IMG/VR virus record: IMGVR_UViG_3300011997_000017
Coordinates: 1-23,157 of that record
Strand: one strand, 5' to 3'
DNA length: 23,157 bases
DNA from: a virus
In this document: piece by piece, positions 1,329 to 7,865 of the stretch
Layout: each line of letters starts with the position of its first letter
Position numbering within the stretch: position 1 is the first letter of the stretch
Notes under the pieces: generated by a model
Seen by the model: only the letters and a program-made list of their open reading frames with translations
Databases searched by the model: none
Told to the model about the DNA's origin: nothing
Translations under genes and position numbers: made by a program

Positions 1329-1577
1329 ATGGAACGCGAAGAGGAACAGCGGTGGATCGACGCCATGTCAGCCACGCTTCGGGCTGAGCGCGGGATCGCT
1401 GGCTACGGCCAAGCGGAACTGGCGAGGCGGACCGGGATTGCCCGCACATCACTACGGCTGTACGAGGAGGGGCGGCGACAGCCCGACGTGATCCAACTCG
1501 CGATGATCGCGGACGCGCTCCACGTCACTGTGGGGCATCTGGTAGGAGAGGCTGAGCGGCGCGCTCGCGGGGTGTAG
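1329..1577 (+). CDS. XRE-family immunity repressor
   Basis: An 82-residue HTH protein transcribed opposite to the early operon. The XRE domain covers about residues 10-73: YGQAELARRTGIARTSLRLY (26-45) is the HTH, followed by EEGRRQPDVIQLAMIADALHV, a textbook XRE continuation. It lacks the C-terminal self-cleavage domain of lambda CI-type repressors, so induction would not be by RecA-stimulated self-cleavage. The frame is open upstream to 1164, but that extension crosses the opposing promoter; ATG 1329 sits 7 nt after a -10 hexamer, which decides the start. It is convergent with the integrase gene. The repressor role is inferred from orientation and position. Confidence 0.78.
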   Translation: MEREEEQRWIDAMSATLRAERGIAGYGQAELARRTGIARTSLRLYEEGRRQPDVIQLAMIADALHVTVGHLVGEAERRARGV

Positions 1578-1615: not shown

Positions 1616-2767
1616 CTAGTCCTCCGGTGAGGACTCCCTCATCTGGGGAAGCATGGCGCTCATCCGCCGCGCGACCTGGTCATCGCGCTCTTGGTCTGCG
1701 ACCTGGTAAATCATCGCCACGGCGGGCTGCGTGTGCCCCAGCCGTGCCATCAACTCTTTGGTGGTCGCCCCAGACTGCCCTGCGAGCGTGGCACCGGTCC
1801 GGCGTAGATCATGCAGGGTGAGCGCCGGCCGCTCGATGGCCCTGGCAGCCTCTTTGTGTGCCCTTCTGAGCACGCCTTCGTCCACCGGGGATGATCCGTC
1901 GACGGCGGGGAACAGTAGCCCAGCAGGCTGCCCTGTGTACGCGTCGAGCCATGCCCTGAGCAGCGGCTGGAGGTGCGGTGGAACAGCAGCGCGTCTCTTG
2001 CCCGCGGCTGTCTTGGGCGGACCCACGAGCCACGTCCGCGTGCCACCGCGCCCGACCTTGGTCACGATCTGCTCGACCCGGATCGCGGTCGCGTCGTCGG
2101 CCACGTCGCAGCGTCGTAGCCCGCGGACCTCACCGGAGCGCAGCGAGCACCAGGCGCACAACAACAGCGGGAGTGCGTGGTGGCGTGCAGCAGCCGTGTA
2201 CGCGCCGAGCTCGCCCACGTTGAGCGCCATCCCGGTCCGTTTCGGTGCTGGCTTCCCGGCGCCCTTGATCCGGACGGGGTTCCGCTCGATCATCTCGTCT
2301 TCGAGCGCGTCAGCCATGAGGGAACGCAGCAGCTGGTACGCGGCCCCGTTCTGTGTGGGCGTGGCGGGGAGGCTGTCGTGCCAGCGCTGGACGTCGGCGG
2401 GGCTGATGTCCACGAGCGGCTTACCGCCGAGCGTGGGCAGGATCGCGAGGTCCAAAAGCTTCCAGTACAGGTCCGTCGTCGTCGGCCGGATCGGCTTGCG
2501 TGCGCGGGTGGCGCGTCGCCGCAGGTTCGCGGTCGCGTACTCCCTGAGCGTCATGCCGTCGACCTGCTCGACGGGCAAGCGGCGACTGGGCGGCGTCCAC
2601 TGGGCGCGGTCGATCAGGATCTCCTCATCGCGGAGCCACACCTCGGCGTCAGCCTTGACGAGGTAGGTGGACCAACCGACGTGGCGGCGGTTGTCTGGGC
2701 CGATGTAGGACGCTTGGTAGCGGGCGGACGGGAGTTTGCGGATGGTGCCGAACGCGCGGCGGTTCAT
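1616..2767 (-). CDS. int: Tyrosine recombinase (phage integrase)
   Basis: A 383-residue site-specific recombinase of the lambda Int type that joins attP to a host attB. Residues 1-60 form an arm-binding-like N-terminus (GTIRKLPSARYQASYIGPD). Residues 70-170 form the SAM-like core-binding domain, and 185-375 the catalytic domain. The catalytic set is complete: Arg210 in SLRSGEVRGL, a Lys at 252 or 257, His319 and Arg322 in LTLHDLRRT, His345 in ARLGHTQ, and the nucleophile Tyr354 in AMIYQ. Length is normal and the gene looks intact. It overlaps the 89-residue upstream gene by ATGA, and its attP lies about 400 bp behind its start, as usual for this class. Confidence 0.95.
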   Translation of the reverse strand: MNRRAFGTIRKLPSARYQASYIGPDNRRHVGWSTYLVKADAEVWLRDEEILIDRAQWTPPSRRLPVEQVDGMTLREYATANLRRRATRARKPIRPTTTDLYWKLLDLAILPTLGGKPLVDISPADVQRWHDSLPATPTQNGAAYQLLRSLMADALEDEMIERNPVRIKGAGKPAPKRTGMALNVGELGAYTAAARHHALPLLLCAWCSLRSGEVRGLRRCDVADDATAIRVEQIVTKVGRGGTRTWLVGPPKTAAGKRRAAVPPHLQPLLRAWLDAYTGQPAGLLFPAVDGSSPVDEGVLRRAHKEAARAIERPALTLHDLRRTGATLAGQSGATTKELMARLGHTQPAVAMIYQVADQERDDQVARRMSAMLPQMRESSPED

Positions 2768-3033
2768 CGGAGTCCCTTCGCGACCCGTAACGCCCGGTCG
2801 TAGTCACGACTCGTCGCGAAGTCGTCTGCGATACGTTCGATGAGTTGGGCGGCTGTCCAGCGCGGGCTCGACTTCGCAGTCTGTTTCGCTTCGGCGATCA
2901 GCGTGGCGACATGCTCCCGGTCACCCATGATGACTCGGAGGCGGCTGGTCGCAGTCTCGATTGCCACGTATCCCTTGAGGGCGTCTGAGAAGTATCCATG
3001 CTGGCCGTACAAGGCCAACCGCGAAAGGTTCAT
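2764..3033 (-). CDS. Hypothetical protein coupled to the integrase
   Basis: An 89-residue, mostly helical, basic cytoplasmic protein that I do not recognise. It has an N-terminal MNLSRLALYGQHGYFSDALK stretch and a C-terminal WTAAQLIERIADDFATSRDYDRALRVA helix pair. The ATG at 3033 is followed by an ORF ending in the ATGA shared with the integrase start, so the two are translationally coupled and share a promoter beside attP. A TACGCT sequence ends 6 nt before the ATG and no well-spaced SD is visible, so the mRNA may be leaderless. A recombination accessory or directionality role is possible by position only. Confidence 0.72.
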   Translation of the reverse strand: MNLSRLALYGQHGYFSDALKGYVAIETATSRLRVIMGDREHVATLIAEAKQTAKSSPRWTAAQLIERIADDFATSRDYDRALRVAKGLR

Positions 3034-3121
3034 GGCCTCAGCGTAAACCGTGCGTTCCCCGTGCGCTATCTATGGCCCGGTATGCACCCCCGTGACCCAT
3101 CGTGCACCCTGGCAACATGGC

Positions 3122-3157
3122 AACACCCCTAGTCAAGTGGTCCTGACTAGGGGTGTT
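3122..3157. terminator. Strong hairpin directly after the tRNA-like 3' end
   Basis: Perfect 14-bp arms AACACCCCTAGTCA (3122-3135) and TGACTAGGGGTGTT (3144-3157) enclose an 8-nt loop. On the minus strand the hairpin begins two bases past the CCA of the tRNA-like segment, where a host tRNA terminator would stand. It could also stop transcription between the integrase and lipoprotein units. It lacks a long T-run. Confidence 0.6.
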
Positions 3158-3159
3158 AG

Positions 3160-3187
3160 TGGTGCGCGAGAGAGGAGTTGAACCTCT
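3160..3187 (-). other. attP: attP core: tRNA 3'-end identity segment
   Basis: Read on the minus strand, the segment is a perfect T-arm (AGAGG, TTCAACT loop, CCTCT), then the 3' acceptor strand CTCGCGC, discriminator A and CCA. The upstream sequence (3188 onward) does not supply a D-arm, anticodon arm or matching 5' acceptor strand, so this is only the 3' end of a tRNA. That is the normal identity core for a tRNA-targeting integrase: insertion would regenerate the host tRNA. A GCGCGAG 5' strand in the host gene is predicted; the isotype cannot be read here. Phage genes on both sides point to attP, not attL or attR. Confidence 0.75.
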
Positions 3188-3290
3188 AGACAATCGTGCC
3201 CTCGCTAGGTGAGAGACGCTATCCGTGCACCCGCGTGCGTTCTACGTGCGTCAGTCTCGCGATAAGCCCACGCGTGACCTCACCGAGTCC

Positions 3291-3296
3291 TACCCT
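3291..3296 (+). promoter_or_regulatory. Possible -10 of a leaderless lipoprotein promoter
   Basis: TACCCT lies exactly 7 nt before ATG 3304, the same geometry as the two immunity-region promoters, and no SD precedes the ATG. No convincing -35 is visible at 16-18 bp, so this is weaker evidence than for the repressor promoter. Confidence 0.35.
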
Positions 3297-3303
3297 TGAG
3301 ACC

Positions 3304-3684
3304 ATGAAGCGCGCCATCCTCGCCCTCGCCGTCATCTTCGTCCTGACCGCGTGCGCTGGCCCGTCAGGCTATGTCGATCATCGATTTGAGTCGACCAACG
3401 AGCTGCGCGAGGTGCTTGCGAAAGCGGGCTACCAGTGCACGTCGGATGACGACAAGGCCAAGACAGAGGCATCGTTGAACCAGTACGGCTTCGACCCGAT
3501 GCCCTGCGACGATGGTGCCGCCACCATCTGGCGATCGGACGTCGTTCGCCGTGAGATCCAAGCCAAGCCGTTCAACGCGCTGAAGGCTGGCCAGGTCATG
3601 ATCGAGGGCATCAACTGGTCGGTGATGGTTCCGACCGATCGGCTCGAGCAGGTCAATAAGGTCCTCAAGGGAACGGTGAAGTGA
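3304..3684 (+). CDS. Small secreted lipoprotein
   Basis: A 126-residue predicted lipoprotein. It has basic residues (KR), a hydrophobic stretch ILALAVIFVL, then the lipobox L-T-A-C with the lipidated Cys at residue 17. The mature part of about 110 residues is polar, with two further cysteines (YQCTS and MPCDD) that could form a disulphide, and it ends in a KGTVK tail. No domain is recognised. It would be anchored on the outer face of the host membrane. The start is ATG 3304, because the longer open frame from 3196 reads through the att region. It is one of only three plus-strand genes, next to attP, and shares an operon with the following membrane protein. Expression in the lysogen is a reasonable inference. 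Confidence 0.8.
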   Translation: MKRAILALAVIFVLTACAGPSGYVDHRFESTNELREVLAKAGYQCTSDDDKAKTEASLNQYGFDPMPCDDGAATIWRSDVVRREIQAKPFNALKAGQVMIEGINWSVMVPTDRLEQVNKVLKGTVK

Positions 3685-3902
3685 TGACGAATCAGCATGA
3701 GTACGCAGACGCGATCAACACGATCAACCGCAGGGTCGCGGCGGGCGAGATGACCGACGGTGAGGCTGACGTCTGGCGCCAGAAGCTCCTCGCCGAGTCC
3801 ACGGAGCGGCCCCGACCGATGTGGGTGAAGGTCCTCATCGTCATAGTGGTCGTGGTCGTGGGGATCATCCTGTTGCGGATGGGCTTCGCAACGATCCGTT
3901 GA
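3684..3902 (+). CDS. SHOCT-like single-span membrane protein
   Basis: A 72-residue protein starting at ATG 3684, which overlaps the lipoprotein stop by one base (TGATG); a GTG at 3681 would add one residue. Residues 8-40 match a SHOCT-like pattern: a helix, then R-x-x-A-G-E-M-T-D-G-E-A and a second helix ending QKLLAE. Residues 46-69 (WVKVLIVIVVVVVGIILL) are one strong membrane helix, with little following it. This SHOCT plus helix layout occurs in small membrane proteins of unsettled function. It is probably partnered with the lipoprotein across the membrane. It ends just before a bidirectional terminator. Confidence 0.75.
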   Translation: MTNQHEYADAINTINRRVAAGEMTDGEADVWRQKLLAESTERPRPMWVKVLIVIVVVVVGIILLRMGFATIR

Positions 3903-3915
3903 TCCCAGACACGCC

Positions 3916-3961
3916 AAAAACGCCCCCTCTCCCGGGGAATCCGGAGAGGGGGCGGCTTTTT
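3916..3961. terminator. Bidirectional intrinsic terminator
   Basis: A perfect 12-bp stem CGCCCCCTCTCC / GGAGAGGGGGCG (3921-3932 and 3943-3954) is preceded by AAAAA (3916-3920) and followed by GC and TTTTT (3957-3961). It therefore has a U-run in both directions. It stops the plus-strand lipoprotein unit and the minus-strand late operon, whose ends converge here. Confidence 0.9.
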
Positions 3962-3999
3962 CGCTCGGCTTGGGGTCCGAGATCAGGGGTGGCTGGCGA

Positions 4000-6310: not shown

Positions 6311-7291
6311 TCAGGCTGCGGTGACGACGAGAGCGCCGGCGTTGGTGACGGTGATCCGGAACCTGGCGCCGCCTGGGGACTTCAGGACGATGCCCTTGGT
6401 GGCGTCGGTGATTTCCACGTCGCGCGGTCCGACCATGACCTGGTTGGGCTGGGTGGTGGTGGCCTGGTAGCCGAGTGCGATCGATCCGGCGTGGTCGGCA
6501 CGGGCCTCGCGCCCGACGCTGGTGGCATTGGCTGCACCTGCCCTGGCGGAGTAGCCGATAGTGGTGATTCCGTCGACCTGTGTCGCGGACGACTGACCGG
6601 AGTCTTGGCCGATGGATGTCTGCATAGAGGCGGTGATGGTTGATTTGCCTGGATTGGCGTAGAGGTCGTTTTGGGCTCCCATACCAATCGCTGTGTTAGA
6701 ACTCCCGGTGGTTAGACGAGACTGCGAGAAGGCGCCTACTGCTGTGTTGTTCTCACCCGTCGTCAGCGCTGCCTGGGATGAGGGACCGACCGCAGCGTTG
6801 TTGAACGCGGTCGTCACATGCTGCTGAGCCGATGGCCCTACTGCTGTGTTGCTGCCCCCGGTGGTTAGGCTGAACTGAGCGCTGTCCCCTACCGCCGTGT
6901 TAGACGCCCCGGTGGTTAGAAGACACTGTGCAGCGCGGCCTACTGCTGTGTTGGAGAGGCCGGTGGTCAGTGTTTCCTGGGCTGCAGCCCCAATCGCTGT
7001 GTTGAAGAGCCCGGACGTCAGAACCGCCTGCGCGTTGGACCCGACCGCCGTGTCACCCGTACCCGTCGTCAGTGATGACTGCGAGTTGGCCCCAAACGCC
7101 GTGTTGTCGCCCTGCGCGAGAACTCCCGCATTGCCCACGGTCAACGAACCGCCCACCACCGCGACGTCCTGAGCATCAATCGCAATGCCAGACCGGACGA
7201 ACGCGGACGACTGGGCCTGACGAAGCGCCTGACGCTTCTGGGTGCGTAGATACCGAGTCAGGGAGGATCCTAGTTCAGGCAGCTTCGACAC
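6311..7291 (-). CDS. YadA-head-like repeat fibre protein
   Basis: A 326-residue tail-fibre-type protein. After an N-terminal helical segment (about 1-60) come nine tandem 17-residue units with consensus SNTAVGxxAQxxLTTGx (residues 62-214). These are followed by classic YadA-head / Hep_Hag motifs (TIGYSARAG, SVGREARAD, SIALGYQATT) and a short beta C-terminus. Such repeats build trimeric left-handed beta-rolls. GTG 7291 is chosen because an AGAGGAG lies 8 nt before it; the open frame to 7363 has no SD and lies inside the HNH gene. The gene overlaps the end of the HNH gene by 17 bp. A receptor-binding or adhesive role is inferred. Confidence 0.78.
   Translation of the reverse strand: MSKLPELGSSLTRYLRTQKRQALRQAQSSAFVRSGIAIDAQDVAVVGGSLTVGNAGVLAQGDNTAFGANSQSSLTTGTGDTAVGSNAQAVLTSGLFNTAIGAAAQETLTTGLSNTAVGRAAQCLLTTGASNTAVGDSAQFSLTTGGSNTAVGPSAQQHVTTAFNNAAVGPSSQAALTTGENNTAVGAFSQSRLTTGSSNTAIGMGAQNDLYANPGKSTITASMQTSIGQDSGQSSATQVDGITTIGYSARAGAANATSVGREARADHAGSIALGYQATTTQPNQVMVGPRDVEITDATKGIVLKSPGGARFRITVTNAGALVVTAA
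6650..7108 (-). repeat. Nine tandem 51-bp (17-codon) repeats
   Basis: The repeats encode units such as SNTAVGRAAQCLLTTGA, SNTAVGDSAQFSLTTGG and NNTAVGAFSQSRLTTGS. All units but the last are exactly 17 codons, and they are diverged at the DNA level. They make the beta-roll of the fibre gene and are protein repeats, not a CRISPR array. Confidence 0.85.
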
Positions 7292-7865
7292 GGGGCGCGC
7301 TCCTCTGCTTCTGGTTGTACTTGGCTCTGGCGACCACCTTGCATGTTCGACAGTTTCGAGCACCCTCCGGCGTTATGTAGGTGTTGGCCTCGTCGAAAGG
7401 GTGGCCCTGTTTGCAGTGAGTCTTCTTGCTTTGCCCATGGCGACCTTTGGCGTCACGGTCGGCCATGTTGTCGGCGGCCGTTCCGAGGAACAGGTGACCG
7501 TCTGGGTAGCCCGCGGTCGGGTCCGTCTGGCAGCAAGGCGGATTGTCACAATGATGTAGGACGTCCATGTCCTCCGGGATCGGGCCGTGCGCCAGTTCCC
7601 ACGAGAAGCGGTGAGTCTTGAGTGACTTGCCATTGACTTTGATCTGTCCGTATCCGCCGATGACGACGCTCTTGGTCCATTCGAGGCACCCGCTAGGCAT
7701 CTCAACGAGGCCAGCGGAAAGACGTTGCTCCGGAGACAGATGTGGGGATATATCGATCTCTCCCCGACTTGCCATCCCCTGGTAGTGATGGGGGCACATG
7801 CCGCGGGCGCCGTGACTTCCAACGAGGGTGTTGCACCCTTCGACGGTGCATCGGGTAGTCTTCAT
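7275..7865 (-). CDS. Free-standing HNH endonuclease
   Basis: A 196-residue homing-type nuclease lying between two tail genes. N-terminal Cys6, Cys11, Cys24 and His26/27 form a zinc knuckle. The central HNH_3-type domain (about 60-145) has GYGQIKVNGKSLKTHRFSWE, then VLHHCDNPPCC with the His-His pair at 104-105 and Asn108, then GHLFLGTAADNMADRDAKGR with His124. A second finger near the C-terminus has Cys151, His155, Cys172 and Cys175. ATG 7865 follows a GAGGAG. Such genes are mobile, copied into sites their enzyme cuts in related phages. It is not inside a visible intron. Surrounding gene coupling is broken here, which fits insertion. Confidence 0.88.
   Translation of the reverse strand: MKTTRCTVEGCNTLVGSHGARGMCPHHYQGMASRGEIDISPHLSPEQRLSAGLVEMPSGCLEWTKSVVIGGYGQIKVNGKSLKTHRFSWELAHGPIPEDMDVLHHCDNPPCCQTDPTAGYPDGHLFLGTAADNMADRDAKGRHGQSKKTHCKQGHPFDEANTYITPEGARNCRTCKVVARAKYNQKQRSAPRVEAA

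What the first reader, a model, noticed from the sequence alone, without database searches (positions are those of the whole stretch)
3304..3902. Lysogen-type two-gene unit: lipoprotein plus SHOCT-like membrane protein beside attP
Only three genes run on the plus strand: the repressor and this coupled pair. The pair sits between attP and the late operon, is closed by a bidirectional terminator and has a possible leaderless promoter. The products are a lipobox lipoprotein (Cys17) and a 72-aa protein with a SHOCT-like segment and one membrane helix. Known phage lipoproteins such as TP-J34 Ltp and T5 Llp block superinfection, so a prophage-expressed exclusion or conversion system is a plausible and apparently unrecorded function. 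Structure and position are seen; function is inferred.
Basis: partly seen in the sequence, partly recalled or inferred. Interest (0 to 1): 0.75.

Follow-up and report, generated by a model that had tools for sequence, protein, structure and literature searches.

The report
Prophage lipoprotein cassette beside probable attP
A virus of an actinobacterium carries a small self-contained two-gene unit, next to the site where it probably inserts into its host, that encodes a surface lipoprotein and a small membrane protein; the lipoprotein belongs to an uncatalogued protein family whose member in the isolated temperate phage StAB lies directly downstream of the repressor gene, so it is probably made in dormantly infected cells and may protect them from other phages, which is untested.

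Summary
At 3304-3902 on the plus strand lie two overlapping genes: a 126-aa lipobox (LTAC, Cys17) lipoprotein and a 72-aa single-helix membrane protein. They are oriented against the late operon, closed by a strong two-way hairpin terminator, and have a -10-like box at leaderless spacing. The nearest relative of the integrase/attP region (L005) keeps the putative attP stretch (87% identity) but lacks the pair, and similarity stops at 3254, so promoter, pair and terminator form a cassette (moron). The lipoprotein has no Pfam, PHROG, NCBIfam, PADLOC or PDB match, but belongs to a real uncatalogued actinobacterial lipoprotein family (two invariant Cys, G-x-N-W). Its three nearest relatives lie beside an integrase, past the endolysin of a prophage, and beside Gabija plus type III R-M. 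Corynebacterium phage StAB gp27 is a member by sequence and predicted fold, and sits in the repressor-peptidase-integrase run; sister phages hold unrelated genes, several lipoproteins, in that slot. This favours lysogenic expression. Superinfection exclusion is the best single guess (about 0.4), not shown. It is not of the Ltp fold; the SHOCT match fails; attP is inferred only; the 72-aa partner is an orphan.

The parts
3255..3303 (+). probable leaderless promoter region: TACCCT (3291-3296) 7 nt before the ATG, no -35 box; left edge of the cassette
   Evidence: blastn similarity to L005 ends exactly at 3254; spacing equals that of the repressor's TAGTCT; chance of a TANNNT at this spacing 0.4% per position; consensus scan negative
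3304..3684 (+). 126-aa lipoprotein, Cys17 lipobox, member of an uncatalogued actinobacterial lipoprotein family (Cys45, Cys68, G102-x-N104-W105)
   Evidence: single-sequence search finds full-length relatives L016 (E 1.2e-4) and L017; profile built from these finds independent members to E 3e-18; invariant columns
3684..3902 (+). 72-aa small membrane protein, cytoplasmic N-terminal part and one C-terminal membrane helix; orphan
   Evidence: ATGA overlap with the lipoprotein gene; hydropathy; no homologue in phages, genomes (membrane-helix matches only) or PDB; SHOCT not met
3903..3964 (.). bidirectional hairpin terminator closing both the pair and the late operon
   Evidence: RNA folding of both strands -34 and -38 kcal/mol with T-runs on each side; terminator scan
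3030..3254 (.). conserved putative attP region: tRNA-3'-end-like sequence and 14-bp perfect inverted repeat; not part of the cassette but its boundary
   Evidence: 87% identity to L005/L006, next to an integrase 79% identical in protein; attB not found
1329..1577 (+). immunity repressor-like HTH gene with a leaderless-type promoter (TTGACT-16-TAGTCT, 7 nt to ATG), used as comparison

Best explanation
A self-contained lysogenic-conversion cassette (moron): own promoter, two coupled genes and a two-way terminator, carried next to the putative attP and transcribed against the silent late operon. In the lysogen it would make (1) a lipoprotein anchored on the outer face of the cytoplasmic membrane, with a small, probably disulphide-bonded alpha/beta domain, and (2) a small membrane protein with a cytoplasmic head. 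Most likely use: protecting the lysogen against superinfecting phages by acting at the membrane where their DNA enters, with the 72-aa protein assisting or modulating from inside. Shown: gene anatomy, family membership of the lipoprotein, cassette boundaries, placement of a homologue in the repressor gene run of phage StAB. Inferred: expression in the lysogen (about 0.75), exclusion of other phages (about 0.4), block at DNA entry and role of the 72-aa protein (weak).
For: Cassette absent from the nearest relative while the flanking putative attP is conserved. Opposite orientation to the late genes and own terminator. Homologue StAB gp27 in one strand run repressor gp29 - peptidase gp28 - lipoprotein gp27 - integrase gp26; sister phages with about 96% or more identical structural genes carry unrelated genes in that slot, lipoproteins in StAB, Stiles and Troy/Lederberg, as expected of a diversifying accessory function expressed with the repressor. 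Nearest relatives of the window protein: L016 beside an integrase, L017 past the endolysin of a prophage and opposite to its late genes, L018 next to a Gabija pair (GajA 725 bits, GajB 698 bits) and a type III R-M system. Two of 17 genome members within 2 kb of an integrase against 0.10 expected (cut-off chosen afterwards). Precedents in actinobacterial phages: CarolAnn 43/44 co-expressed with the repressor (PMC6426606), Sbash 30/31 (PMC6426596) and Butters 30/31 (PMC7542560) defend the lysogen; Ltp is a prophage lipoprotein that blocks DNA injection (PMC3952083).
Against: No member has a tested function. Most family members found (corynebacterial-type, streptomycete-type) are single chromosomal genes with no phage or defence context, so the domain is not specific for defence. 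No PADLOC match for the pair or relatives. Not Ltp-like in sequence or predicted fold. The 72-aa partner is not conserved beside any relative. Promoter weak by consensus. L018's nearness to Gabija is one case.
Confidence: 0.42

Rival explanations
1. A lysogenic-conversion cassette whose lipoprotein changes the host envelope for the host's benefit (adhesion, binding of a ligand, stress or cell-wall maintenance) and has nothing to do with other phages. It would be a captured host lipoprotein gene.
For: Same family is encoded as stand-alone chromosomal lipoproteins in many actinobacteria: 20 of 396 genomes of the order and 38 of 395 of the class, mostly without phage context. Same position as conversion genes in general.
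Against: Nearest relatives of the phage protein are on mobile or defence-linked loci; one slot in sister phages exchanges unrelated lipoproteins, which fits an arms race better than one host function.
Confidence: 0.33
2. A late or lysis-accessory pair (for example a spanin-like lipoprotein plus membrane protein, or an antiholin/lysis regulator).
For: Lies beside the lysis end of the late operon; lipoprotein plus single-helix protein resembles the parts list of two-component spanins (established knowledge).
Against: Opposite strand to the lysis genes and separated from them by a terminator; helix is C-terminal with almost nothing outside, the reverse of an inner spanin; no outer membrane expected in a monoderm host; homologue StAB gp27 is in the repressor gene run, not the lysis operon; no PHROG lysis match.
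Confidence: 0.06
3. An abortive-infection or RexAB-like pair in which the 72-aa protein is the membrane effector and the lipoprotein an outside sensor.
For: Two-gene, lysogen-type, membrane-linked arrangement as in Sbash, CarolAnn and Butters (PMC6426596, PMC6426606, PMC7542560).
Against: Those systems pair a cytoplasmic DUF4747-type protein with a membrane protein of several helices; here neither protein resembles either and one helix is a poor ion channel unless oligomeric.
Confidence: 0.1
4. Spurious or decaying genes with no function.
For: The 72-aa protein has no homologue anywhere searched.
Against: Strong codon-position signal in both genes, intact lipobox, conserved cysteines and GxNW motif in a protein only about 25% identical to its relatives, dedicated terminator.
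Confidence: 0.04

Closest known systems
Corynebacterium phage StAB gp27 (Samwavirus, MK937613; BFVD A0A514DJF9 'Lipoprotein')
   Same: Same lipoprotein family: lipobox, two Cys in register, LVGPxW motif; 47.7-bit profile match; best viral fold match of a family member, TM 0.75, E 6.6e-7; encoded in the lysogeny region of a temperate actinobacterial phage
   Different: Lies in the repressor gene run upstream of the integrase instead of in its own cassette beyond the putative attP; no 72-aa partner; function also unknown
Ltp of Streptococcus thermophilus phage TP-J34 and Ltp-type proteins
   Same: Prophage-encoded lipoprotein gene expressed in the lysogen, outside face of the membrane (PMC3952083)
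   Different: Ltp domain is two helical repeats; here a mixed alpha/beta domain with two conserved Cys; no sequence match to solved structures
Cutibacterium acnes phage gp41 (Lauchelly/Aquarius; PMC11480721)
   Same: Actinobacterial phage surface protein suggested to act in superinfection resistance
   Different: No match to the family profile; predicted cystatin/VirB8-like fold according to the paper; pseudolysogenic phage
Butters gp30/gp31, Sbash gp30/gp31, CarolAnn gp43/gp44
   Same: Two-gene, lysogenically expressed, membrane-linked defence units of actinobacterial phages
   Different: Cytoplasmic DUF4747-like protein plus a membrane protein (four helices in Butters and Sbash); no lipoprotein (PMC7542560, PMC6426596, PMC6426606)
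Lambdoid Cor and T5 Llp exclusion lipoproteins
   Same: Small phage lipoproteins that block infection (established knowledge)
   Different: Only the signal peptide resembles Cor (PHROG 1119, E 0.15, residues 1-19); those act on outer-membrane receptors of Gram-negative hosts

Membership tests
Uncatalogued actinobacterial lipoprotein family (C45, C68, GxNW) | Lipobox at the end of an N-terminal signal peptide | tested here: met
   VLTAC, Cys17; aligned with the lipobox of relatives; Pfam LPAM_1 itself is below cut-off (11.4 of 20 bits)
Uncatalogued actinobacterial lipoprotein family (C45, C68, GxNW) | Two invariant cysteines and G-x-N-W near the C-terminus, full-length alignment | tested here: met
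   Invariant in 13 of 13 aligned members; full-length matches L016, L017 from the window protein alone
Uncatalogued actinobacterial lipoprotein family (C45, C68, GxNW) | Common fold | tested here: inconclusive
   Model of window protein low confidence (pLDDT 64); model of relative L101 pLDDT 71 matches StAB gp27
Ltp-type superinfection exclusion lipoproteins | Lipid anchor plus two helical repeat domains | tested here: not met
   Predicted mixed alpha/beta; no PDB sequence or fold match
Ltp-type superinfection exclusion lipoproteins | Blocks DNA injection of other phages, targets tape measure protein | not testable with these tools
   Needs infection assays
SHOCT domain (72-aa protein) | Match to PF09851 | tested here: not met
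   No match at E<=10 while controls ring; also none
RexAB/Sbash/CarolAnn-type defence pair | Cytoplasmic DUF4747-like protein with multi-helix membrane protein | tested here: not met
   Neither protein fits
Phage moron / lysogenic conversion cassette | Own promoter and terminator, opposite or independent transcription, patchy presence among relatives | tested here: met
   Boundaries 3255-3964, absent from L005/L006, terminator present; promoter weak
Phage moron / lysogenic conversion cassette | Expressed from the prophage | not testable with these tools
   No expression data; inferred from StAB gene order
Two-component spanin | Encoded with lysis genes; inner spanin with N-terminal helix and periplasmic coil | tested here: not met
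   Opposite strand, C-terminal helix

The most novel reading that the evidence does not exclude
The GxNW lipoprotein family is a previously unrecognised group of actinobacterial superinfection-exclusion lipoproteins, taken from or exchanged with a chromosomal envelope lipoprotein family, and prophages swap unrelated lipoproteins through a dedicated slot beside the repressor or attP; here a small membrane partner extends it to a two-component gate.
Probability: 0.25. Interest if true: 0.72.

Novelty: new variant of a known kind. Interest (0 to 1): 0.48.

Why it matters
Prophage surface lipoproteins that block superinfection are well studied in streptococci and enterobacteria, whereas in actinobacterial phages the studied lysogen-encoded defences are cytoplasmic/membrane pairs. 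A defined lipoprotein family with members in phage lysogeny modules, beside integrases and near a defence island, and a slot in isolated Corynebacterium xerosis phages in which near-identical phages carry different lipoproteins, gives a direct, cheap test: swap or delete one gene and measure plating of the sister phages.

Tried and rejected
Direct searches with the window lipoprotein failed in phages (DNA and protein), IMG/VR, GTDB contigs, plasmids, Pfam, PHROGs, NCBIfam, PADLOC, PDB; only the six-frame search of 396 genomes of the order worked. tblastn of relatives and of a family consensus against the phage collection also failed, although StAB gp27 is there; it was found through fold search. 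Fold searches of PDB gave no significant match. Alignment A2 contained a mistaken fourth sequence and was discarded. Alignment A5 was too diverged for a collection scan. attB search by the tRNA-like 28-mer found nothing. ARAGORN and Rfam find no tRNA in the window. The 72-aa protein gives only membrane-helix matches. The idea that the lipoprotein is acidic like Ltp is not supported: 16 acidic against 14 basic residues.

Full report
Observation. The window is an IMG/VR virus record of 23,157 bases. At 3304-3684 and 3684-3902 on the plus strand lie two ORFs overlapping as ATGA. The first encodes MKRAILALAVIFVLTAC..., a lipobox ending at Cys17; the second a 72-aa protein with one clear membrane helix near its C-terminus. 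Both show the strong third-position GC typical of this phage's genes. The only other convincing plus-strand gene is the HTH repressor at 1329-1577. A G+C-rich hairpin with T-runs on both sides follows. Upstream, TACCCT ends 7 nt before the ATG; the repressor has TAGTCT at the same distance. That is the arrangement of leaderless actinobacterial genes (established knowledge), but there is no -35 box and the consensus scan is negative, so the promoter is a weak inference.

Cassette. An integrase search found one close relative, L005 (IMG/VR 3300012008), with the same phage also in a MAG contig, L006 (UBA4719). blastn aligns window 3030-3254 with L005 at 87% identity and stops at 3254. L005 passes from the last late gene through its own terminator-like hairpin straight into this stretch; it has no lipoprotein pair. 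Thus 3255 to about 3964 is a unit of promoter region, two genes and terminator that one phage has and the other lacks. The conserved stretch looks like attP: it adjoins the integrase side, carries what reads as a T-arm and acceptor strand of a tRNA 3' end, and a 14-bp perfect inverted repeat. I could not find an attB, so attP stays inferred.

Family. No library knows the lipoprotein. A six-frame search of 396 genomes of the order of L006's MAG returned, as its three best hits, L016 (E 1.2e-4, full length, 126-aa frame), L017 (E 0.002, full length) and L018 (E 0.003). Their alignment with the window shows the lipobox Cys, two further Cys, and G-x-N-W. A profile from these four finds independent proteins down to E 3e-18 in the order (20 of 396 genomes) and, rebuilt with 13 rows, in 38 of 395 genomes of the class. 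Tested members have no Pfam, NCBIfam or PHROG family either. So the family is real and uncatalogued in the libraries used, and mostly chromosomal in actinobacteria.

Context of the nearest relatives. L016 lies about 180 bp upstream of a 397-aa tyrosine integrase (PHROG integrase E 4e-57). L017 lies on a prophage contig: tail genes, endolysin, then a metalloprotease of the ImmA kind, then the lipoprotein on the opposite strand to the late genes, much the layout of the window. L018 lies next to a Gabija pair (GajA 725 bits, GajB 698 bits) and a type III R-M system. A codon-degenerate motif scan of IMG/VR gave two more members: L101, six bases from and convergent with an integrase on an integrative element, and L102 without clear context. 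L060 (L095) lies near a tRNA-Gly and a broken integrase. Among 17 genome members examined, two lie within 2 kb of an integrase against 0.10 expected from 91 integrase domains in 59 Mb (my arithmetic, P about 0.005, with the distance chosen afterwards). Other members, such as L039-L041, L072 and streptomycete ones, sit among housekeeping genes.

Isolated-phage homologue. An AlphaFold2 model of L101 (pLDDT 71, alpha-beta-beta-alpha-beta-beta-alpha-beta order) has one significant match among viral structures: the lipoprotein of Corynebacterium phage StAB (E 6.6e-7, TM 0.75). I retrieved StAB: gp27 (137 aa, lipobox Cys19) matches the family profile with 47.7 bits. It lies on one strand in the run repressor gp29, peptidase gp28, gp27, integrase gp26, with start/stop overlap, so it should be expressed with the repressor in lysogens (inference from gene order). 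Sister phages with about 96-99% identical structural genes have, in that single-gene slot, a different lipoprotein in Stiles (140 aa; its profile score of 17 bits comes from the signal peptide and N-terminal part), another in Troy and Lederberg (198 aa), a membrane protein in Adelaide, and a 304-aa protein in Bran, none similar to each other by blastp. The slot thus exchanges mainly envelope proteins in the lysogeny module. This is the best evidence that such lipoproteins are prophage functions under diversifying pressure.

Function. In actinobacterial phages, gene pairs expressed with or beside the repressor defend lysogens: CarolAnn 43/44, Sbash 30/31, Butters 30/31 (PMC6426606, PMC6426596, PMC7542560). 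In streptococci the prophage lipoprotein Ltp blocks DNA injection (PMC3952083), and an Ltp-like role was proposed for a C. acnes phage protein (PMC11480721), which does not match this family. By analogy of expression and location, superinfection exclusion at the membrane is my leading explanation, at about 0.4. The main rival is lysogenic conversion of the host surface without antiphage role, since most of the family is chromosomal and stand-alone. A lysis role is unlikely from strand, terminator, topology and the StAB context. The 72-aa protein is an orphan; the SHOCT reading fails a direct test, and its role as partner rests on gene overlap alone.

Verdict. Observation confirmed; interpretation partly supported. 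It is a moron cassette with a lipoprotein of an uncatalogued family, a new variant of the known kind 'prophage surface lipoprotein', with function untested.

Noticed in passing
L088 9297-9830 and 5220-8516: A family member (L018) lies beside a complete Gabija pair and a type III restriction-modification system, a defence island.
   Followed up: partly
L111 (StAB), L113 (Stiles), L108 (Troy), L112 (Lederberg), L114 (Adelaide), L115 (Bran): In Samwavirus and related Corynebacterium xerosis phages the single-gene slot between repressor-peptidase and integrase holds mutually unrelated genes, several of them lipoproteins, although structural genes are about 96% or more identical.
   Followed up: partly
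window 1616-2767 vs L005 3614-4759: The integrases are nearly identical over the first about 200 residues and much more diverged in the catalytic half, as if domains had been exchanged or the core site had changed.
   Followed up: no
window 6311-7363 (-): 350-aa protein made of many repeats of the type NTAVGxxAQxxLTTGxS, likely a beta-structured tail or fibre protein.
   Followed up: no
window 3122-3157: 14-bp perfect inverted repeat (ACACCCCTAGTCA...TGACTAGGGGTGT) next to the tRNA-like sequence, conserved in L005; could be a copied host terminator or an integrase arm/accessory site.
   Followed up: partly
L101 2060-3813: Family lipoprotein six bases from and convergent with an integrase on an integrative-element-like contig classed as virus in IMG/VR.
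   Followed up: partly
L095 999-3051: Family lipoprotein close to tRNA-Gly and a frame-broken integrase.
   Followed up: no
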